From NCBI GenBank assembly GCA_025359185.1, contig JANYHF010000023.1, positions 1 to 64,000 of the forward strand: a DNA stretch of 64,000 nucleotides, written 5' to 3'. A program made the position numbers and the translations under genes. The notes under the pieces were generated by a model, which saw nothing but the letters and a program-made list of their open reading frames with translations, ran no database searches and was not told the origin of the DNA. Below, one piece after another: positions 6,728 to 55,423 of this stretch (the stretch's first letter is position 1; each line of letters begins with the position of its first letter). The stretch comes from Hyphomicrobiaceae bacterium (GTDB lineage Bacteria > Pseudomonadota > Alphaproteobacteria > Rhizobiales > Hyphomicrobiaceae).

Positions 6728-7263
6728 GTTGGTTCAGCAATCATTCATGTTGCCACGCGCGGCGCTGGACACGCTGGAGGACGCCTCCAACACTCCGCAC
6801 ATGACCAACTACGACGGCTTTCGGAAGCAATCGCACTGTATTAACTTTAACAACAACAGTTTTACTCTAGAATATTTGTTGCTGTATACTACACATATCT
6901 TTACCGGGCGGGACGAGTCGACCGTCGGGCTTGTGGTGAGGATACGGTGGCCGGGTGGATTGTGGGGTGACACCCTCATAAAGCCCGGAGTGCCGGCGGA
7001 TGTGCCCCTGGTGTCTGCGGTGTCAGCAATGGCGTGACGCGGGCCGGTGCCGAAGCGGCTGCACGCGGACGGTTTGGTGCCTTTCGGGGTTCCTGGACCT
7101 ATCCCGTAAGAGCATGTCCCGGTTCTAAATCGCCGTGGTGCAGGTGCCGGAAGATCGCTTCATCACTGCCCAATACCCATAACGCGGTCTCCGGTGCCTG
7201 CACCCCCGCCTGCCGCTTGCTCGTTGGTCACCCCCCGCGGGGCGCATACCTTTAGCCTTTACC
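6728..7263. other. 536-base region without a recognised gene
   Basis: No convincing protein is seen. An AT-rich stretch (about 6836-6905), unusual in this window, holds a promoter-like pair: TTTACT at 6861-6866 and TATACT at 6885-6890 with an 18-base spacer, reading toward the + strand. Downstream, from about 6910, the DNA is GC-rich. At 7138-7203 a long hairpin has 14-base arms (7138-7151 with 7190-7203), interrupted only by a TG/TG internal loop. Short open frames here have no recognisable motifs. The region may encode a non-coding RNA, but I could not match it to tmRNA, RNase P RNA, SRP RNA or 6S RNA. Confidence 0.4.
6861..6890 (+). promoter_or_regulatory. Putative sigma-70-type promoter
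   Basis: TTTACT (6861-6866) and TATACT (6885-6890) are spaced by 18 bases inside an AT-rich island, a good match to the TTGACA/TATAAT pattern. The first recognised gene in that direction is hsp20 about 500 bases downstream, which has its own heat-shock promoter. The product may therefore be an untranslated RNA. Confidence 0.4.
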
Positions 7264-7291
7264 CTTGAATTCCAGACGGTCCATCCCATTT
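7264..7291 (+). promoter_or_regulatory. Sigma-32 (RpoH) heat-shock promoter
   Basis: CTTGAAT (7264-7270) and CCCATTT (7285-7291) are separated by 14 bases. This matches the RpoH consensus CTTGAAA-N13-17-CCCATNT closely. It lies about 100 bases upstream of the hsp20 ATG, which leaves a 5' leader of roughly 90-95 bases containing a thermometer-like hairpin. Confidence 0.8.
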
Positions 7292-7298
7292 CCTGTCT

Positions 7299-7393
7299 TG
7301 TCACGCAGGCCACTGATGGCGGCGCGGCATCCGGCGGTCCGGCCCCACTTGGGCGGACCATTCCACGGGTTGCTTCCCTAGAAGGATCATGTG
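7299..7393 (+). ncRNA. ROSE-like RNA thermometer in the hsp20 leader
   Basis: The leader folds into at least two hairpins. The upstream one pairs 7336-7341 with 7354-7359 and continues with GCCC/GGGC-type pairs. The 3' hairpin pairs 7369-7376 with 7381-7388 around a CCTA loop and buries the AAGGA ribosome site (7382-7386). Its pairs, from outside in, are G-C, U-U, U-A, G-G, C-G, U-A, U-A and C-G. The U(U/C)GCU strand opposite the ribosome site, with a G-G and a U-U mismatch, is the signature of ROSE elements that control rhizobial small heat-shock genes. Length, position and promoter type also agree. Confidence 0.78.
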
Positions 7394-7861
7394 ATGCGAC
7401 ACTTCGATTTTGCCCCTCTCTACCGTTCCACAGTTGGTTTTGACCAGATGGCTGCGCTTCTCGATAGCGTCGCCGGCGGTCAGGCCGATGCCTCAACGTT
7501 CCCGCCCTACAATATCGAGCGGCTGAGCGAAAACAGCTACCGGATCTCGATGGCGGTTGCCGGTTTTGGCCCCGAGGACTTGAAACTGGAGTCCAAGGAA
7601 AGTCTGTTGACCGTGCGCGGCGATAAGGCCGATGACGCCGGTACGCGCGAGTTCCTGCATCGCGGCATCGCTGGCCGCAGCTTCGAGCGCCGCTTCCAGC
7701 TTGCCGACTACGTCGAAGTGACCGGTGCCGACATCAAGGACGGCATGTTGTACATCGACCTCAAGCGCGAAGTGCCTGAGAAGATGAAGCCGCGCACGAT
7801 TGCGATTGGCGGCACGAGCAAGTCGGTCGAGACGATGATCGAGCACAAGCAAGCGGCGTAA
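7394..7861 (+). CDS. Hsp20 family small heat-shock protein
   Basis: This 155-residue protein is an ATP-independent holdase chaperone that binds unfolding proteins as oligomers in the cytoplasm. A variable N-terminus (1-32) begins MRHFDFAPLYRSTVGFDQ, as in IbpA-class proteins. The alpha-crystallin domain spans about residues 35-130, and a C-terminal IAI motif (the I-x-I patch for oligomer contacts) follows in PRTIAIGG. The ATG at 7394 follows AAGGA; an in-frame GTG directly precedes it. Transcription is probably from the RpoH promoter at 7264, and translation is probably gated by the ROSE-like hairpin. A terminator follows at 7889. Confidence 0.92.
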   Translation: MRHFDFAPLYRSTVGFDQMAALLDSVAGGQADASTFPPYNIERLSENSYRISMAVAGFGPEDLKLESKESLLTVRGDKADDAGTREFLHRGIAGRSFERRFQLADYVEVTGADIKDGMLYIDLKREVPEKMKPRTIAIGGTSKSVETMIEHKQAA

Positions 7862-40931: not shown

Positions 40932-41077
40932 GCTTGGGTCAAGCCTTCGCGCGACCCAACAACTCAGCAACAAATGCAACTCTCGCAGTGCACGCACATT
41001 GCTACAGGATTATGAACTAGACAATTAGCCTGTGCGGCATAGATGTTGGGTCGCGCGAAGGCTTGATCCAACCTACG
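40932..41077. repeat. Inverted repeat (family B, copy 2)
   Basis: Left arm 40932-40962 and right arm 41043-41077 are near-perfect inverse copies carrying TTGGGTCAAGCCTTCGCGCG and its reverse. The same arms occur at 49022-49119. The internal 80 bases are more AT-rich and differ from those of the other copy. The right arm provides the TAG stop of the gamma-carbonic anhydrase gene at 41073. It resembles a MITE without any coding capacity. Confidence 0.82.
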
Positions 41078-47514: not shown

Positions 47515-48339
47515 ATGCAGAACGCCATTGATCCGAATCCGCTGGCGCTGAACCGCGCCGACGCTGGCGTGCGCCTCGCCTATAGCGCGGGCGAGCCGGT
47601 CTCGCGATTGCAGTCGCTGACAGAGTGGGGCGGTTACCGAGCCAAGTTCCCAACCACTGACGCCCGCGCCGAAGCCGTACTCATCAACACCGGCGGCGGC
47701 GTCGCGGGCGGGGACAAGTTGCAGATCGAAGTCGCGCTGGAGGCAGGCGCGGCGCTCACCATCACCACGCAATCGGCCGAACGCATCTACCGGTCGCTGG
47801 GTGACGACGCGCGCATCACAACTCAGCTCGACGTGGCCGCCGGGGCTGACCTCGCTTTTGTGCCGCAAGAGACCATCCTGTTCTCACGCGCCCGGCTCGC
47901 CCGCACGATTGACGCGGATATGGCTCTGGACGCCCGTTTGCTGCTGGCCGAGATGACCGTGTTCGGCCGCGCGGCGATGGGCGAACGCGTGACCGGCGGC
48001 AGCTGGCGCGATCGCTGGCGCATCCGGCGGATCGGCACACTGGTTTATGCCGACGATGTGCGTATCGAGGGGAACATTCACGAACTCCTCGCGCACGCTG
48101 CCATCGGTCACGGCGTCAGCGCGTTGGCTACTGTCCTCTATGTTGCCCCAGACGCGGCAGAACGGTTGAAGCAGGTGCGCGCAGGCTTGGCGTCCGCGAC
48201 CTGCCGCGCCGCCGCCAGCAGCTGGAATGGTCTCCTCTCGGTCCGCGTCCTCGGTAACCCGCAAGCCGTGCGCAGCATTATGGCCTCGACCATCACCACC
48301 CTTTCGCGTCGCCCGCTCCCGCGTGTATGGTGTATGTGA
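47515..48339 (+). CDS. ureD: Urease accessory protein UreD
   Basis: This 274-residue accessory protein with UreF and UreG forms the apourease activation complex. Markers are YSAGEPVSRLQSLTEWGGYRAKFP near the N-terminus, TGGGVAGGDKLQIEVAL near residue 60, AERIYRSLGDDARI near 88, FVPQETILFSRARLART near 115 and GRAAMGERV near 150. The gene opens the urease operon ureDAB. A weak ribosome site (GTAGGG) precedes ATG 47515. The end TLSRRPLPRVWCM is slightly longer than usual. ureA follows by 18 bases. Confidence 0.92.
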   Translation: MQNAIDPNPLALNRADAGVRLAYSAGEPVSRLQSLTEWGGYRAKFPTTDARAEAVLINTGGGVAGGDKLQIEVALEAGAALTITTQSAERIYRSLGDDARITTQLDVAAGADLAFVPQETILFSRARLARTIDADMALDARLLLAEMTVFGRAAMGERVTGGSWRDRWRIRRIGTLVYADDVRIEGNIHELLAHAAIGHGVSALATVLYVAPDAAERLKQVRAGLASATCRAAASSWNGLLSVRVLGNPQAVRSIMASTITTLSRRPLPRVWCM

Positions 48340-48357: not shown

Positions 48358-48660
48358 ATGAACCTGACCCCCCGAGAAAAAGACAAACTGCTGATCTCCA
48401 TGGCCGCCATGGTCGCGCGCCGCCGTCTCGAACGCGGCGTCAAGCTCAACCATCCCGAAGCCATCGCGCTGATTTCCGACTTCGTAGTCGAGGGCGCGCG
48501 GGACGGCCGCACTGTCTCCGAACTGATGCGCGACGGCGCCACCGTCGTCACCCGCGCCCAGGTGATGCCCGGCATCGCCGAGATGATCCACGACGTGCAG
48601 GTGGAGGCGACCTTCCCCGACGGCACGAAGCTTGTCACCGTGCATGAGCCCATCCGATGA
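48358..48660 (+). CDS. ureA: Urease gamma subunit
   Basis: This 100-residue structural subunit assembles with UreB and UreC into the urease trimer. It matches the family along its length: [23 protein letters not shown] at the N-terminus, [19 protein letters not shown] near residue 22, [18 protein letters not shown] near 50, and [18 protein letters not shown] near 79. The stop overlaps the ureB start (ATGA), as in many urease operons. Confidence 0.96.
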
Positions 48661-48989
48661 GCAAGGCCATCGTGAAGAACGCCATGATCCCGGGCGAGAT
48701 TTTCCCCAGGGCGGGCGATATCGAGTTGAATGCGGGGCGTCCGGTTACCACGCTCACAGTATCCAACACCGGCGACCGGCCGATCCAGGTCGGCAGCCAC
48801 TATCATTTCTTTGAGACCAATCCGGCGCTCGATTTCGACCGGGCCAAGGCACGGGGAATGCGGCTGGATATTGCGGCGGGAACGGCGGTGCGCTTCGAGC
48901 CTGGCCAGACCCGCGAAGTGCGGCTGATCCCCGTCGTGGGCAAACGGACCATACACGGGTTCCGGCAGGGTGTGATGGGGAAGTTGTGA
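48657..48989 (+). CDS. ureB: Urease beta subunit
   Basis: This 110-residue urease beta subunit carries [18 protein letters not shown] near residue 8, the diagnostic [19 protein letters not shown] near 37, and [18 protein letters not shown] near 80, ending FRQGVMGKL. Start ATG 48657 overlaps ureA. After the stop the operon is interrupted by a repeat element (49022-49119) and the RNA ligase gene before ureC, which normally follows directly. Confidence 0.96.
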
Positions 48990-49021: not shown

Positions 49022-49119
49022 CACGTAGGTTGGGTCAAGCCTTCGCGCGGCCCAGCATCTAGGCCACAAACGCCTTTGCCAACGCGTTGGGTCGCGCGAA
49101 GGCCTTGACCCATCCTACA
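49022..49119. repeat. Inverted repeat (family B, copy 3) between ureB and RNA ligase
   Basis: Left arm from 49024 carries GTAGGTTGGGTCAAGCCTTC and the right arm (49084-49118) the inverse with GTCGCGCGAAGGCCTTGACC. The same arms form the repeat at 40932-41077. It lies 32 bases after the ureB stop and 32 before the RNA ligase ATG, within the urease operon. Confidence 0.83.
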
Positions 49120-49150: not shown

Positions 49151-50278
49151 ATGACCCGCCACATCGCCCACTTGATGCCATTCGCCGATCTCGCTGCTGG
49201 CTTGCGTGCCGCGCGCGACGCGCGGCTGGTCTATGAGCGGCAGGGGCCGGATGGGTTGACCCTCTACGCGTACACGGAGCGCTGCGTGTTCGAGTCGGCC
49301 TGGACGCCGATCACCAAGTCCGCACGCGGATTGATCATCGACCACGCGGAGAAGCGAATCGTCGCAACGCCGTTCGCCAAATTCTTCAATGTCGGCGAAC
49401 TGGGCGAGCCAGTACCAGACCTTCCGTTCGAAGCGACGGACAAACTCGATGGCAGCCTGATCATCATTTTTCATCATGCGGGGCGCTGGCGGTCCGTGAC
49501 CAAGGGATCATTCGAGTCCACCCAAGCGCTGTGGGCGCAGGCGCGGCTGGACAAGATGGACCTTGCGCCGCTCAGCATCGGCACAACCTATCTCGCCGAA
49601 GCCACGTACCCGGAGAACCGGATCGTCGTGCGGCACACGGAGGAGGCGCTCAGGCTGCTGGCGGCCTATGCGGCGGACGGGACGGAACTTGCCTTTGCCG
49701 ATGTGATCGCGGCGGGCACGTCCATCGGCCTCGACACCGTCGCCCGCGTGGCCTTCGCCACCATTCCCGAGTTGCTGATCCGCGCCAAGCACCTGCCCAA
49801 AAGCAGCGAGGGCTATGTCATCCGGTTCAGCAACAGCCACCGGCTGAAGGTGAAGGGCGACGAATACCGGCGCATTCACGCGCTGATCTCGGGCCTGAGC
49901 CCGCTGTCGGTCTGGCAGGCCATGCAAGCGGGCGACGACATGATCGCGATCCGGCGTGACTTGCCCGAGGAATTCTGGGACGATTTCGACAGTATCCAGA
50001 GATTGCTGGCTGCGCAGGTGTCTGCGTTTGTCGAACGCGCCGAGGCGACAGCCGCAACCGTCGCCACCCTCACCGACAAGGAGGTCGGCCTGCGGCTAAC
50101 ATCCTTTGACGAAGACATCCGTGGCCTGCTGTTCGATCTTCGCAAAACCGGCGCAGGCTGGACCACCGGCCGCGCCCGGCAAAAACTGTTCCGCCTGATC
50201 CGGCCGGAGGCCAATGTCTTGCCCGGCTATACGCCGTCGTCAATCCTCATCCGTGCTGTTGAAGAAGCCCAAGGTTAG
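49151..50278 (+). CDS. T4 Rnl1-like RNA ligase
   Basis: This 375-residue nucleotidyltransferase-type ligase seals RNA 3'-OH and 5'-phosphate ends using ATP. Motif I is DKLDGSL with nucleophile K98; a characteristic ARGLIID stretch lies at residues 58-64. A motif III-like segment YLAEATYPENRIVV surrounds E150. Motif IV is EGYVIRF (E220) and motif V is LKVKGDEY (K233, K235). An all-helical C-terminal domain (about 245-375) follows. It lacks a kinase or phosphatase domain. The gene sits between ureB and ureC in the same direction, 6 bases before ureC, flanked by a family B repeat, a location I do not know from other urease operons. Its likely role is RNA repair; no relation to urease is evident. 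Confidence 0.85.
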   Translation: MTRHIAHLMPFADLAAGLRAARDARLVYERQGPDGLTLYAYTERCVFESAWTPITKSARGLIIDHAEKRIVATPFAKFFNVGELGEPVPDLPFEATDKLDGSLIIIFHHAGRWRSVTKGSFESTQALWAQARLDKMDLAPLSIGTTYLAEATYPENRIVVRHTEEALRLLAAYAADGTELAFADVIAAGTSIGLDTVARVAFATIPELLIRAKHLPKSSEGYVIRFSNSHRLKVKGDEYRRIHALISGLSPLSVWQAMQAGDDMIAIRRDLPEEFWDDFDSIQRLLAAQVSAFVERAEATAATVATLTDKEVGLRLTSFDEDIRGLLFDLRKTGAGWTTGRARQKLFRLIRPEANVLPGYTPSSILIRAVEEAQG

Positions 50279-50284
50279 CACCCC

Positions 50285-52000
50285 ATGCCCCTCAAAATCC
50301 CGCGTTCTGCTTACGCGCAGATGTATGGCCCGACCACCGGCGACAAGGTGCGGCTCGCCGATACCGACCTCATCATCGAGGTGGAGAAGGATCTCACCAC
50401 CTATGGCGAGGAGGTAAAATTCGGCGGCGGCAAAGTGATCCGCGACGGCATGGGGCAGTCGCAGGTGACAAATGCGAAGGGCGCAGTGGATACGGTCATC
50501 ACCAACGCGCTGATCCTCGATCATTGGGGCATCGTGAAAGCGGATGTCGGGTTGAAGGACGGCCGCATCAAGGCCATTGGCAAGGCCGGTAATCCCGATA
50601 TCCAGCCCGGCGTCGATATCATCGTTGGTCCGGGCACGGAGGTGATTGCGGGCGAGGGCAAGATCCTCACGGCTGGCGGTTTCGACACCCACATCCATTT
50701 CATCTGCCCACAGCAGATCGAGGAGGCGCTGATGTCCGGCGTCACGTCCATGCTGGGCGGCGGCACCGGCCCTGCGCACGGCACGTTCGCAACGACGTGC
50801 ACGCCCGGCCCATGGCACCTTGCGCGGATGATCCAGGCCGCCGACGCCTTCCCGATGAACTTGGGTTTTGCGGGCAAGGGCAATGCGTCACGGCCCGAAG
50901 CCCTCATTGAAATGGTCGAAGCGGGCGCCTGCGCGCTGAAGCTGCATGAGGACTGGGGGACCACACCCGCCGCCATCGACAACTGCCTGAAGGTCGCCGA
51001 CGACTACGACGTGCAAGTCATGATCCACACAGACACGCTCAACGAGAGCGGCTTTGTCGAGGACACGATCAAGGCCTTCAAGGGGCGCACCATCCACGCT
51101 TTCCACACCGAAGGGGCGGGTGGCGGGCATGCGCCCGATATCATGCGGGTGACGGGGCTGCCGAACGTCTTGCCGAGTTCGACCAACCCGACACGGCCGT
51201 TCACGCGCAACACCATCGATGAACATCTCGACATGCTGATGGTCTGCCACCATCTCTCGTCGTCGATCCCCGAGGATCTCGCCTTCGCCGAAAGCCGCAT
51301 ACGGAAAGAAACTATCGCCGCTGAGGACATCCTCCATGATCTCGGCGCGCTCTCGATGATGAGTTCGGACAGCCAAGCCATGGGCCGCGTCGGCGAAGTG
51401 ATTATCCGCACCTGGCAAACCGCGCATAAGATGAAGACCCAACGGGGGCCGCTGCCGCAAGACAAAGGGGCGGGCAACGACAATTTCCGCGCCAAGCGCT
51501 ATGTGGCGAAATACACAATCAATCCGGCCATCTCGCATGGTGTGTCGAAGGAGATCGGTTCAGTGGAAGCGGGCAAACTCGCCGACCTGGTGCTTTGGAG
51601 CCCGGCGTTTTTCGGCGTGAAGCCCGATTGTATCATCAAGGGCGGCATGATCGCCGCCGCGCCCATGGGCGATGCCAACGCCTCGATCCCGACGCCGCAG
51701 CCCGTCCACTACCGCCCGATGTTCGGCGCCTTTGGCGGCGGCCCGACGGCAACGTCGTTGATCTTCACCAGTGCGGCGGCCATGACAGGCAAATTGCGGA
51801 AAACTCTGGGCACGTCGAAACAGATGGTCGCGGTAGAGAACACCCGCGGCGGCATCGGCAAGAAGGACATGATCCACAACGGCGCCACACCCAAACTGGA
51901 GATCGACCCCGAGACCTACGAAGTCCGCGCCGACGGCGAATTGCTCACCTGCGAGCCCGCCACCGAGCTGCCGATGGCACAGCGGTATTTTCTGTTTTAA
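50285..52000 (+). CDS. ureC: Urease alpha subunit (catalytic)
   Basis: This 571-residue subunit hydrolyses urea to ammonia and carbamate at a dinuclear nickel site. Ligands are visible: H136 and H138 in THIHF, carbamylated K219 in [10 protein letters not shown]248 in MIHTD, H274 in AFHTEG and D362 in SSDSQAMGR, with C321/H322-H323 of the mobile flap in [11 protein letters not shown]. Numbering is offset by two from the Klebsiella enzyme. The N-terminus [20 protein letters not shown] is canonical. The RNA ligase gene ends six bases upstream; DUF29 follows. Confidence 0.97.
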
Positions 52001-52100: not shown

Positions 52101-52556
52101 ATGGAACAGGCCGTTTTGCTGCGCGCCAAGCGATGGCAAGATCTGGACCTTGAAACTCTGGCGGAGGAGGGCGAAGACATGGCCAGATCACAAAAGAAGG
52201 AAATCCGCGGCAGGCTCGAAGTCCTGATCATGCATTTGTTGAAGTGGAAGTATCAACCTGGCCGCCGGACTCCAAGTCGGAAGAATACAGTTTTCAACCA
52301 ACGGCAAGACCTCGTTGAGTTGATAGCCGATATGCCGAGCGAAAGGCCCTACTTGCGCGAAGCCTTTCCAAACCGGTACAACGCAACGCGGCTTTCCTCC
52401 GAGGCGGAAACGGGCATTGCTTTCGTTTTGTTTCCTGACGAATGCCCTTTCACCTTGGAACAGGTTATGGACATTGAATTCTATCCAGATGAGCCCGGCA
52501 TGTATCACCGGCGAACAAACTCCCATGAACATTATATAGCTGGGCACCATCCATGA
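52101..52556 (+). CDS. DUF29 family protein, probably 5'-frameshifted
   Basis: The 151-residue product matches DUF29: ALLRAKRWQDLDLETLAEEG in its N-terminal part, EIRGRLEVLIMHLLKWKYQP near residue 34, a long helix, and the C-terminal FTLEQVMDIEFYPD. Family members normally begin with LYExDFxxWA upstream of this point. Exactly such residues (PLYEKDFHDWAMEQA) are encoded from 52068 in this frame, but no start codon precedes them before the TGA at 52035; the natural ATG (52034) lies in another frame. A one-base change near 52040-52065 probably explains this. Function unknown. It is coupled (ATGA) to the monooxygenase gene downstream. Confidence 0.75.
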   Translation: MEQAVLLRAKRWQDLDLETLAEEGEDMARSQKKEIRGRLEVLIMHLLKWKYQPGRRTPSRKNTVFNQRQDLVELIADMPSERPYLREAFPNRYNATRLSSEAETGIAFVLFPDECPFTLEQVMDIEFYPDEPGMYHRRTNSHEHYIAGHHP

Positions 52557-52849
52557 TCTACGTCCTCGCCACCATCAAGACCAAACCGGGCATGGCCCAA
52601 GCGCTGATCGCAGGTGCCGCCCCTTGCATCGCGGCGACGAGGAGCGAGGAGGGGTGCATCTCATACGACCATGTGCAGGACACGTCTGATCCCGATACTT
52701 TGCTCGTGGTCGAACGCTGGATCAGCCGCGAAACGCTTGAGGCGCACATGCACACGGCCCATCTCGCCGCATGGCGGGTGGAGCGCAAGCCACTCGTCAT
52801 CAGCACCAAGGTCGAGATCATCCATGCCGCTAAGGTCGAGACGTTGTGA
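52553..52849 (+). CDS. Antibiotic biosynthesis monooxygenase (ABM)-domain protein
   Basis: This 98-residue dimeric alpha/beta-barrel protein has the ABM/YgiN pattern: [33 protein letters not shown] near residue 32, [21 protein letters not shown] near 50 and a final strand [14 protein letters not shown]. Relatives are cofactor-free quinol or polyketide monooxygenases; the residues do not fix a substrate. It starts at an ATGA overlap with DUF29 and its stop overlaps the ureE GTG, so it is translationally integrated into the urease operon. Confidence 0.85.
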
Positions 52850-53319
52850 GCGTTGCGATGCTGCGCGCCACGGCCGTCGAGACTTTTAGCGTTGCGCCGG
52901 CCGCCGGCCGGGTTCTACTTGATTTCGATGCCCGTTACCGGCGGCGCACGGCCATGCGGACGGAGGACGGCCTCGATTTCCTGCTCGACCTCGAACGTGC
53001 GCAGCGGCTCCGCCACGGCGACCGGCTGGTGCTGGAGGATGGCCGCCGCATCGCCGTCGAAGCCGCGCCCGAAGACTTGGCCGAGATCCGCGCGCCCGCG
53101 CCCGGCGAACTCATGCGCATCGCGTGGCATCTCGGCAACCGCCACCTGCCGGTGATGCTGGCGCCGGGCAACATCCGTATCCGCCGCGATCACGTCATCG
53201 AGGCCATGGTGATCGGCCTCGGCGGCACCGTCGCGCACATCTACGCCGCCTTTGACCCGGAGCGCGGCGCCTATGCCGGCGGCAACGCCCACAGCCACGG
53301 CGGCGATGATGGCGCGTGA
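52846..53319 (+). CDS. ureE: Urease accessory nickel chaperone UreE
   Basis: This protein of about 157 residues delivers nickel to the urease assembly complex. The N-terminal domain includes [25 protein letters not shown]; the metal-binding C-terminal domain includes [38 protein letters not shown] with the conserved His cluster. The tail [15 protein letters not shown] is only mildly His-rich. GTG 52846 overlaps the ABM stop; ATG 52858 is an alternative. ureF follows, overlapping or after a palindromic repeat. Confidence 0.92.
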
Positions 53320-53361
53320 TTTGAAAATCTCGCCACCGGGGCGAAGCCACGACACTAGCGT

Positions 53362-53483
53362 CTCTTCCCCCCTTGTGGGGGAGGAACAAGGTGGGGGGTC
53401 AAAGGCGCAGGACGCGCGAAAGACTCTTTGTTTGCGACCCCCACCAGGCGCTCTTGCGCCAGCCTCCCCACAAGGGGGAGACG
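53362..53483. repeat. Palindromic repeat at the start of ureF
   Basis: Nested inverted arms: the outer pair CCCCCTTGTGGGGGAGG (about 53368-53384) with CCTCCCCACAAGGGGGAG (53463-53480), and an inner pair GTGGGGGGTC (53391-53400) with GACCCCCACC (53436-53445). It separates the end of ureE from the conserved part of ureF. The right arm's GGGGGAG lies five bases before an in-frame GTG at 53486 and may serve as its ribosome site. Confidence 0.8.
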
Positions 53484-53485
53484 GA

Positions 53486-54196
53486 GTGATTGGTTTTGGT
53501 GCACAACACTCTTTCAACGCCGGGCGTGCGGCGCCCAACCCAGCATTGCTGCTTCAAATCTGGTTCTCGCCGTCGTTCCCGGTTGGGGCGTTTGCGTACA
53601 GCCATGGCCTGGAACGCGCTGTCGAGGCTGGCTTCATTCGCGACCGGGGCAGCCTCACGGTTTGGCTGGCTGATCTGTTCGCACACGGATCGATCCGCAA
53701 CGACTTGATCCTGGCCGCTGCCGCCTGGCGCGCCGCCACTGCAAACGACACGCAAGCCTTGTGGGACGTCGCCGAACTGGCGGCGGCCCTTCACCCTGCG
53801 GCCGAACGACGGTTGGAGTCCCTCACCCAGGGCAGTTCATTCGTGGTCGCCGTCAAAGCCGCCTGGCCTACGTCCGCGCTCGCGGCACTTATGGACGAAA
53901 CGACCTACTCCGTCGCCGTCGCCGCCACCGCCGCTGGCCACGGCATCGCGCTTCTGCCACTCCTCGAAGCCTACGCCGCCGCTTTCGTTGCCAACCTCAC
54001 TTCGGCCGCCATTCGCCTCAGCGTCATCGGCCAGACCGACGCGCAGCGTATCCTCGCTGACCTCCTCCCCACCTTGTCATTGGCCGCGCGCGCCGCCGCT
54101 ACCTCTACCCTCGACGATCTCGGCAGTGCAACCTGGTCGGCCGATCTGTGTGCCCTCGAACACGAAACTCAATACACGAGGCTCTTTCGCTCATGA
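53486..54196 (+). CDS. ureF: Urease accessory protein UreF
   Basis: This 236-residue accessory protein works with UreD and UreG in nickel insertion. The conserved segments are [33 protein letters not shown] in its N-terminal part, [21 protein letters not shown] near residue 55 and AAVWLxxG-type helices to the C-terminal [11 protein letters not shown]. The open frame extends to 53252, where ATGs at 53306 and 53309 would add about 60 residues encoded by a palindromic repeat. I prefer GTG 53486 because it gives the usual family length and has GGGGGAG upstream, but the longer product cannot be excluded. The stop overlaps ureG (ATGA). Confidence 0.85.
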
Positions 54197-54810
54197 CCCC
54201 TTCACGCAACGGCCCTCTCCGCGTCGGCATCGGCGGCCCGGTCGGTTCCGGCAAGACGACGCTCACGGAACAGTTGTGCAAGCACTTCCGCGCGACCATC
54301 GACCTCTGCGTCATCACCAATGATATCTACACCAAGGAAGACGCCGAGATCCTGATGCGCGCGCAGGCGCTGCCGTTGGAGCGCATCATGGGCGTGGAAA
54401 CCGGCGGCTGTCCGCATACGGCCATCCGCGAGGACTGCTCGATTAACCTCGCCGCCATAGCGACGATGCGCGCCAAATTCCCCAAACTCGATCTGATCCT
54501 GATCGAGAGCGGGGGCGACAATCTTGCCGCCACCTTCTCGCCGGAGCTCGCAGACCTCACCCTCTACGTGATTGACGTTGCCCAGGGGGAGAAAATCCCC
54601 CGCAAGGGCGGGCCTGGCATCACGCGGTCGGACCTGCTCATCATCAACAAGATCGACCTGGCGCCCCATGTGGGCGCCGATCTCACTGTCATGGAGCAGG
54701 ACGCCAAAAAGATGCGTGGAGACCGTCCCTTCGTTTTCACGAACATGCGGACGGGTGTAGGGTTGGCAGCGATCACGGGGTTCATCCGCCGAGTGGGCGG
54801 AATTGGATAA
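54193..54810 (+). CDS. ureG: Urease accessory GTPase UreG
   Basis: This 205-residue SIMIBI-class GTPase powers nickel insertion. It has P-loop [13 protein letters not shown] near residue 12, [11 protein letters not shown] near 42, the nickel-binding CPH motif in [14 protein letters not shown] near 69, [16 protein letters not shown] near 98, [16 protein letters not shown] near 125 and the NKID base motif near 150. ATG 54193 overlaps the ureF stop and is the usual family start; frames open to 54148 are ignored. It ends the operon; no nickel or urea transporter gene follows. Confidence 0.95.
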
Positions 54811-55066: not shown

Positions 55067-55423
55067 GTGTCACTGCAAATGAATTACGAACAATGGGGGT
55101 ATGGCCCGCCACATCCTGGCGAGATTCTGCGCGACCAGATCCTGCCGCGCCTTAACCTCAGCCGGACCGAACTTGCCAAACGGCTCGGTGTTCGTCTGTC
55201 GCAGCTCTCCGATGTCCTCAACCAACGCCGTCCGGTGTCGCTCGATATGGCCCGCCGGCTTGGCAAGGCCTTTGGCAATGGCGCCCGCTATTGGCTCGCC
55301 CTGCAGATGCAGCACGACGTGTGGAACGCCGAGCGAGACGACACGATGGACGTGAAGCCGATTATGGTCTCAGCTCACGCTCTGGCAGTGAAGAGCCGCG
55401 TGAACGCGGATGCGCGTCAATAA
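55067..55423 (+). CDS. HigA-type addiction-module antitoxin / XRE regulator
   Basis: This protein of about 118 residues has a HigA-like helix-turn-helix. Markers are PPHPGEILRDQILPRLNLSRTELAKRLGV near residue 14, LSQLSDVLNQRRPVSLDMARRLGKAFG near 45 and YWLALQMQHDVWNAE. Such proteins repress their own operon and neutralise a HigB RNase toxin. No HigB gene is found on either side, so it is an orphan antitoxin or a stand-alone regulator. The start is GTG 55067 or ATG 55079; an A-GGACG site lies at 55050. Its 3' end overlaps the convergent hydrolase gene by 62 bases. Confidence 0.82.
   Translation: MSLQMNYEQWGYGPPHPGEILRDQILPRLNLSRTELAKRLGVRLSQLSDVLNQRRPVSLDMARRLGKAFGNGARYWLALQMQHDVWNAERDDTMDVKPIMVSAHALAVKSRVNADARQ

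What the first reader, a model, noticed from the sequence alone, without database searches (positions are those of the whole stretch)
49151..50278. RNA ligase gene embedded in the urease operon
A complete T4 Rnl1-like RNA ligase (motifs I, III, IV and V intact) lies between ureB and ureC, in the same orientation, six bases from ureC, with a family B inverted repeat just upstream. ureB and ureC are normally adjacent. Its RNA-repair chemistry has no known link to nickel enzymes, so it is either a recent capture stabilised by co-transcription or a coupling between repair and nitrogen supply. The lone ligase lacks the end-healing kinase-phosphatase usually paired with it.
Basis: partly seen in the sequence, partly recalled or inferred. 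Interest (0 to 1): 0.72.

Follow-up and report, generated by a model that had tools for sequence, protein, structure and literature searches.

The report
RNA ligase cargo in urease operon
An intact RNA-sealing enzyme gene sits inside the urease operon, and related bacteria repeatedly carry RNA-cutting toxin pairs or RNA ligases in that same gap, so it is best read as cargo at a recurrent insertion site rather than as part of urease itself.

Summary
A complete 375-aa T4 Rnl1-type RNA ligase (49151-50278) lies between ureB and ureC, in the same orientation, 6 nt before ureC. The arrangement is recurrent. The same ligase subfamily (A) lies between ureB and ureC in G097, another genus of the family. 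In G1305, another family, it lies directly before ureC (ureB side unresolved). A second Rnl1 subfamily (B) lies antisense between ureB and ureC in G313 and G1187.

The ureB-ureC gap is an insertion hot spot in this order. Of 106 gaps, 40 are at least 300 nt long; 17 hold a sense PIN toxin gene (usually with AbrB-type antitoxin), while none of 213 other ure gaps does. The three ligase-A ureases are not one ureC clade (p-AU 0.0002), and the closest urease to the window's has an empty 32-nt gap.

Elsewhere the ligase follows a HAD-phosphatase/kinase (Planctomycetes, a viral contig, subfamily B) or neighbours rtcR/rtcB (Rhizobium). Best explanation: a mobile RNA-repair ligase that landed in a preferred, co-transcribed slot. 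It probably seals broken RNA and is probably not needed for urease. A functional link between RNA damage or repair and urease expression is not excluded. Sealing activity and co-transcription are untested.

The parts
47515..48339 (+). ureD (urease accessory)
   Evidence: Pfam UreD 5.8e-53
48358..48660 (+). ureA (gamma subunit)
   Evidence: Pfam Urease_gamma 1.1e-46
48657..48989 (+). ureB (beta subunit)
   Evidence: Pfam Urease_beta 8.3e-46
49151..50278 (+). T4 Rnl1-type RNA ligase (subfamily A)
50285..52000 (+). ureC (alpha subunit); a Shine-Dalgarno-like AAGG (50271-50274) lies inside the end of the ligase gene
   Evidence: NCBIfam urease_alph 7e-296; sequence
52101..52556 (+). DUF29 cargo between ureC and ureE
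   Evidence: Pfam DUF29 1.1e-35; three copies at the same place in G313
52553..52849 (+). ABM-domain monooxygenase-like cargo between ureC and ureE
   Evidence: Pfam ABM 1.6e-19; also in this gap in three other genomes
52846..53319 (+). ureE
   Evidence: Pfam UreE_C 5.7e-26
53252..54196 (+). ureF (ORF as listed; the Pfam match starts at residue 129, so the true start is probably downstream)
   Evidence: Pfam UreF 1.3e-32
54148..54810 (+). ureG
   Evidence: Pfam cobW (CobW/HypB/UreG) 4.9e-41

Best explanation
The gene encodes a working stand-alone 5'-3' RNA ligase of the T4 Rnl1 kind. It belongs to a sporadic, horizontally spread bacterial subfamily whose usual setting is RNA repair. Here it is cargo at a preferred insertion site, the ureB-ureC junction, and is most likely expressed as a passenger on the ure transcript. 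Its likely job is to seal broken RNA, probably tRNA, that carries 5'-phosphate and 3'-OH ends, made directly or after end healing by another protein; it is probably not needed to make urease. Shown: intact gene and motifs, fold, position, recurrence, hot-spot statistics and RNA-repair neighbours elsewhere. Inferred: co-transcription, substrate and physiological role.
For: Motifs and fold. Relatives are sporadic: 4 of 103 family genomes at E<=1e-3, and at E<=1e-20 5 of 397 (order), 3 of 385 (class) and 4 of 398 (phylum). They reach Planctomycetes, Bradyrhizobium, Rhizobium plasmids and viral contigs. Repair context: directly after HAD_PNKP + AAA_33 kinase genes in L006, L007 and L049, beside rtcR and rtcB in Rhizobium; subfamily B follows a similar gene in G1250. 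Hot spot: 40/106 ureB-ureC gaps >=300 nt; PIN genes in 17/106 there but 0/40 ureC-ureE, 0/99 ureA-ureB, 0/74 ureD-ureA; 9 PIN clusters at 50% identity suggest repeated arrival. Ligases in that slot: window, G097, G313, G1187, and next to ureC in G1305. Ligase-A ureases not one clade; empty 32-nt site in the closest urease, and G313/G1333 flanks align up to ureB+4 and from ureC-19.
Against: No transcript or activity data. The ligase tree neither shows nor rejects a single urease-associated clade (p-AU 0.25; window + G097 68/84), so one old capture with many losses and operon transfer is possible. Two ligase subfamilies choosing the same junction is more than a generic hot spot predicts. G097 has an antisense DUF433/DUF5615 pair between ligase and ureC, which would hinder simple read-through. 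In G1305 the ureB side is not on the contig.
Confidence: 0.7

Rival explanations
1. Functional coupling: RNA repair and urease (nitrogen or urea stress) are co-regulated because the ligase is wanted when urease is made, for example to restore tRNAs cut by endoribonuclease toxins during nitrogen stress, or to act on the ure mRNA itself.
For: Three of the four subfamily-A genomes found in the order samples have the ligase at or beside this junction, in the sense orientation and 6-50 nt before ureC in two of them. RNA-cutting PIN toxin genes are the commonest cargo in the same gap.
Against: Most urease operons lack it; subfamily B is antisense; the ureases do not form one clade; the same subfamily lies elsewhere in Rhizobium and Planctomycetes. 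No paper was found in the library linking RNA ligase with a urease operon.
Confidence: 0.15
2. Neutral hitchhiker: a recently captured ligase with no selected role in this host, tolerated because it does not interrupt ure expression.
For: The closest urease operon has an empty gap; no closely related genome carries the gene.
Against: Full-length frame with all catalytic motifs at 46-61% identity to relatives; codon usage matched to the host; recurrence in several genera.
Confidence: 0.1
3. Ancestral component: an Rnl1 ligase entered the ureB-ureC slot once, spread with the operon, and was lost or replaced by toxin-antitoxin pairs in most lineages.
For: A single clade of urease-associated ligase A is not rejected (p-AU 0.25).
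Against: The three ureases are scattered among ligase-free ones, so many losses are needed; subfamily B must be a separate event.
Confidence: 0.15

Closest known systems
T4 RNA ligase 1 (Rnl1, gp63; PF09511, TIGR02308, phrog_562)
   Same: Motifs I, III, IV and V; fold (2c5u is the top Foldseek match); size
   Different: About 20% identity; below the TIGR02308 equivalog cut-off (46.9 against 242); chromosomal, no adjacent Pnkp, in a metabolic operon
T4-type Pnkp + Rnl1 end-healing and sealing pair (tRNA restriction repair, PMC3400036)
   Same: Planctomycete, viral-contig and G1250 relatives of this ligase follow a HAD phosphatase + kinase gene
   Different: No such gene beside the window ligase, and none detected in this genome (no positive control)
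Bacterial Pnkp1-Rnl-Hen1 RNA repair cassette (PMC4411300)
   Same: Bacterial ATP-dependent RNA sealing with dedicated healing partners
   Different: Different ligase and partners; no Hen1 or Pnkp1 here
RtcR-regulated rtcBA RNA repair operon (PMC7790460)
   Same: Rhizobium copies of this ligase lie beside rtcR and rtcB
   Different: RtcB is an unrelated 3'-5' ligase; the window genome's one RtcB-family gene is on another contig
Accessory genes inside alphaproteobacterial urease operons (e.g. ureJ/HupE between ureA and ureB)
   Same: Insertions between structural ure genes are common in these families
   Different: Known insertions such as ureJ serve nickel or urease; the ureB-ureC cargo seen here is often RNA-acting (PIN toxins, ligases)

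Membership tests
T4 Rnl1 RNA ligase family (PF09511) | Covalent nucleotidyltransferase motifs I (KxDG), III, IV and V | tested here: met
   K98-L-D-G-S, E150, E220-G221, K233/K235 invariant in 11 sequences and aligned to T4 Rnl1
T4 Rnl1 RNA ligase family (PF09511) | Score above the Pfam gathering cut-off | tested here: met
   54.9 against 28.3 bits
T4 Rnl1 RNA ligase family (PF09511) | Rnl1 fold | tested here: met
   AF2 pLDDT 87.7; best PDB match 2c5u, E 3.7e-16
T4 Rnl1 RNA ligase family (PF09511) | All-helical C-terminal domain as in T4 Rnl1 | tested here: inconclusive
   Residues 237-375 are almost wholly helical in the model, but whole-chain TM is 0.53 with rmsd 14.6
T4 Rnl1 RNA ligase family (PF09511) | ATP-dependent 5'-P/3'-OH RNA sealing | not testable with these tools
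   needs a biochemical assay
T4 RnlA equivalog (TIGR02308) | Score above the equivalog cut-off | tested here: not met
   46.9 against 242.25
Pnkp + Rnl1 healing and sealing operon | Adjacent HAD phosphatase/kinase gene | tested here: not met
   Neighbours are ureB and ureC; present beside L006, L007 and L049 relatives
Pnkp1-Rnl-Hen1 cassette | Hen1 and Pnkp1 genes next to the ligase | tested here: not met
   gene-by-gene annotation of the operon
ureB-ureC insertion hot spot (described here) | Cargo between ureB and ureC while close urease relatives have an empty gap | tested here: met
   L083 gap 32 nt with 88% identical UreC; 40 of 106 gaps occupied
Essential urease component | Conserved with ureC across relatives | tested here: not met
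   Ligase in 4 of 103 family genomes (2 of those at the ure locus) against ureC in 35 of 103

The most novel reading that the evidence does not exclude
The ureB-ureC junction of these urease operons is a dedicated slot for RNA-damage and RNA-repair genes. PIN/AbrB toxin pairs and Rnl1 ligases of two subfamilies are alternative occupants, tying urease expression to the state of RNA damage in the cell, for example through addiction to the operon or repair during nitrogen stress.
Probability: 0.15. Interest if true: 0.8.

Novelty: new variant of a known kind. Interest (0 to 1): 0.55.

Why it matters
It shows that one junction inside a conserved metabolic operon repeatedly takes up genes that act on RNA (PIN-type toxin-antitoxin pairs and RNA ligases of two families), while neighbouring junctions do not. 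That makes operon-internal insertion hot spots, and the question of whether such cargo is selfish, protective or regulatory, directly testable. It also adds an uncharacterised bacterial Rnl1 subfamily with healing-enzyme and rtc-operon neighbours, whose substrates are unknown.

Tried and rejected
Unique chance insertion: rejected, since G097, G313, G1187 and G1305 repeat it.
Assembly artefact: unlikely; the window contig is 75.6 kb and independent genomes repeat the order.
Phage remnant in the window: not supported. The phage relatives found are at most about 36% identical and none covers 80% of the query; codon usage is host-like; no phage genes are seen in the operon.
The neat idea that a lone Rnl1 is matched to PIN/VapC cuts (5'-P/3'-OH) is left as a weak inference. 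One paper treats VapC ends as 5'-OH (PMC6459853) and another says either end is possible (PMC10945364).
Anti-phage defence filing: no PADLOC match.
Monophyly of urease-associated ligase A: unresolved.
PNKP in this genome: no hit, but the search had no positive control.
RtcB in this genome: one divergent family member at C9:14348, not in a recognisable repair operon.
Remnants of ligases in other ureB-ureC gaps: none convincing.
Paper searches for ligase + urease operon: nothing. A half-remembered 1994 Rhizobium meliloti paper on urease genes interrupted by other ORFs was not in the library, so it is not used as evidence. A DOI guessed from memory led to an unrelated paper.
The query (T4 Rnl1) was typed partly from the alignment and partly from memory, which the instructions advise against for virus sequences. 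It served only to find the public record, which replaced it.

Full report
What is there. The ORF at 49151-50278 is a complete 375-codon gene. It matches the T4 RNA ligase 1 family in Pfam (1.5e-14, above the gathering score), PHROGs (1.9e-46) and the PDB (2c5u, 2.9e-7), but falls well below the TIGR02308 cut-off for true T4 RnlA equivalents. All catalytic residues are invariant among 11 relatives. The AlphaFold2 model (pLDDT 87.7) finds T4 Rnl1 as its best solved neighbour. The gene order is ureD-ureA-ureB-ligase-ureC-DUF29-ABM-ureE-ureF-ureG, all on the + strand. The ligase stops 6 nt before ureC, and a Shine-Dalgarno-like AAGG for ureC lies within the last codons of the ligase.

Recurrence. 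In the same family, G097 (another genus) has ureD-ureA-ureB-ligase-ureC, with 37 nt between ureB and the ligase. Between its ligase and ureC lies an antisense DUF433/DUF5615 pair. In a second family, G1305 has the closest relative found of the window's ligase (61% identity), 50 nt before ureC; its contig ends before ureB. Two further genomes of that second family, G313 and G1187, have a different Rnl1 subfamily (about 32% identical to the window's) in the same gap but antisense. G313 also has three DUF29 genes between ureC and ureE, where the window has one.

A hot spot. I measured gaps in ure operons from both families. Between ureB and ureC, 40 of 106 gaps are 300 nt or longer. Of these, 17 hold a PIN-domain gene on the sense strand, usually with an AbrB/MazE-type antitoxin gene; 4 hold an Rnl1 ligase (the window among them); 3 a SnoaL-like gene; 16 other ORFs. 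None of the 40 ureC-ureE, 99 ureA-ureB or 74 ureD-ureA gaps holds a PIN or ligase gene; ureA-ureB holds almost only ureJ/HupE. The PIN proteins fall into 9 clusters at 50% identity, which suggests repeated arrival. The loci were taken best-match first and then by hand across genera, so the percentages describe this sample, not the order as a whole.

Gain or loss. A ureC tree rejects one clade for the three ligase-A ureases (p-AU 0.00024); each groups with ligase-free ureases. The closest urease to the window's (G1177, 88%) has a 32-nt gap. G313 and G1333 (97% identical UreC) align up to 4 nt past ureB and again from 19 nt before ureC, with unrelated DNA between. The ligase tree cannot settle whether the urease-associated ligases form one group (p-AU 0.25). 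Repeated gain is the simplest reading.

What the ligase does elsewhere. In Zavarzinella and another planctomycete, and in a viral contig, the same subfamily directly follows a polynucleotide phosphatase-kinase gene. In Rhizobium phaseoli and Rhizobium sp. BT03 plasmids it lies beside rtcR and rtcB. Subfamily B follows a similar phosphatase-kinase-like gene in G1250 (not profiled). This supports an RNA-repair role and gives no hint of a role in urease. It is rare everywhere sampled.

The inverted repeat. The hairpin at 49025-49118 belongs to an interspersed palindromic repeat family (32 half-sites here, 68 in G073), with a second cluster at 40934-41077 in the window. The same repeat stands alone between ureB and ureC in G073, so it is not specific to the ligase. 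It folds strongly (z -6.4) but has no T-run, and no terminator or sigma-70-like promoter was called between ureB and ureC on the + strand.

Mechanism, with status of each step. Shown: intact gene, motifs, fold, position, recurrence, hot spot. Inferred: expression as part of the ure transcript; sealing of 5'-phosphate/3'-OH RNA; a repair role after endoribonuclease damage. This genome has 10 PIN-family genes, so substrates are conceivable, but published VapC end chemistry is mixed and I give that link little weight.

Taxonomy. The order is inferred to be Hyphomicrobiales because G124, in the same order, has a ligase nearly identical to that of Rhizobium.

Noticed in passing
L042 (G097) 6911-7412: An antisense DUF433/DUF5615 pair (a putative PIN-like toxin-antitoxin pair) lies between the ligase and ureC in G097.
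   Followed up: partly
L021, L036, L084, L086, L097, L099, L103, L118, L140, L143, L152, L162, L164, L166, L167, L169: AbrB/PIN (vapBC-like) pairs in the sense orientation between ureB and ureC in many genera: an operon-internal toxin-antitoxin hot spot that deserves its own study.
   Followed up: partly
window 50440-50726 (-): Rfam 5_ureB_sRNA (a Helicobacter antisense RNA) scores 114 bits antisense to ureC; this may only reflect conservation of the ureC coding sequence.
   Followed up: no
window 52101-52849: DUF29 and ABM genes between ureC and ureE have lower GC (0.56) and atypical codon usage (r = 0.72), more foreign-looking than the ligase.
   Followed up: partly
L053 and L056 (Rhizobium plasmids): The same ligase subfamily sits beside rtcR and rtcB, and downstream of a sarcosine oxidase operon; two ligase chemistries side by side.
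   Followed up: no
L007 9252-10833: Downstream of the planctomycete kinase-phosphatase + ligase pair are an HD-domain-like protein and a nucleotidyltransferase-like protein (judged by eye), perhaps a larger RNA repair island.
   Followed up: no
window 40934-41077: A second cluster of the palindromic repeat family found upstream of the ligase.
   Followed up: partly
window 53320-53420: The ureF ORF runs upstream into repeat-like sequence between ureE and ureF, so the listed start is probably wrong.
   Followed up: no
window 55067-55423: A HigA/VapI-like HTH protein downstream of ureG without an evident toxin partner.
   Followed up: no
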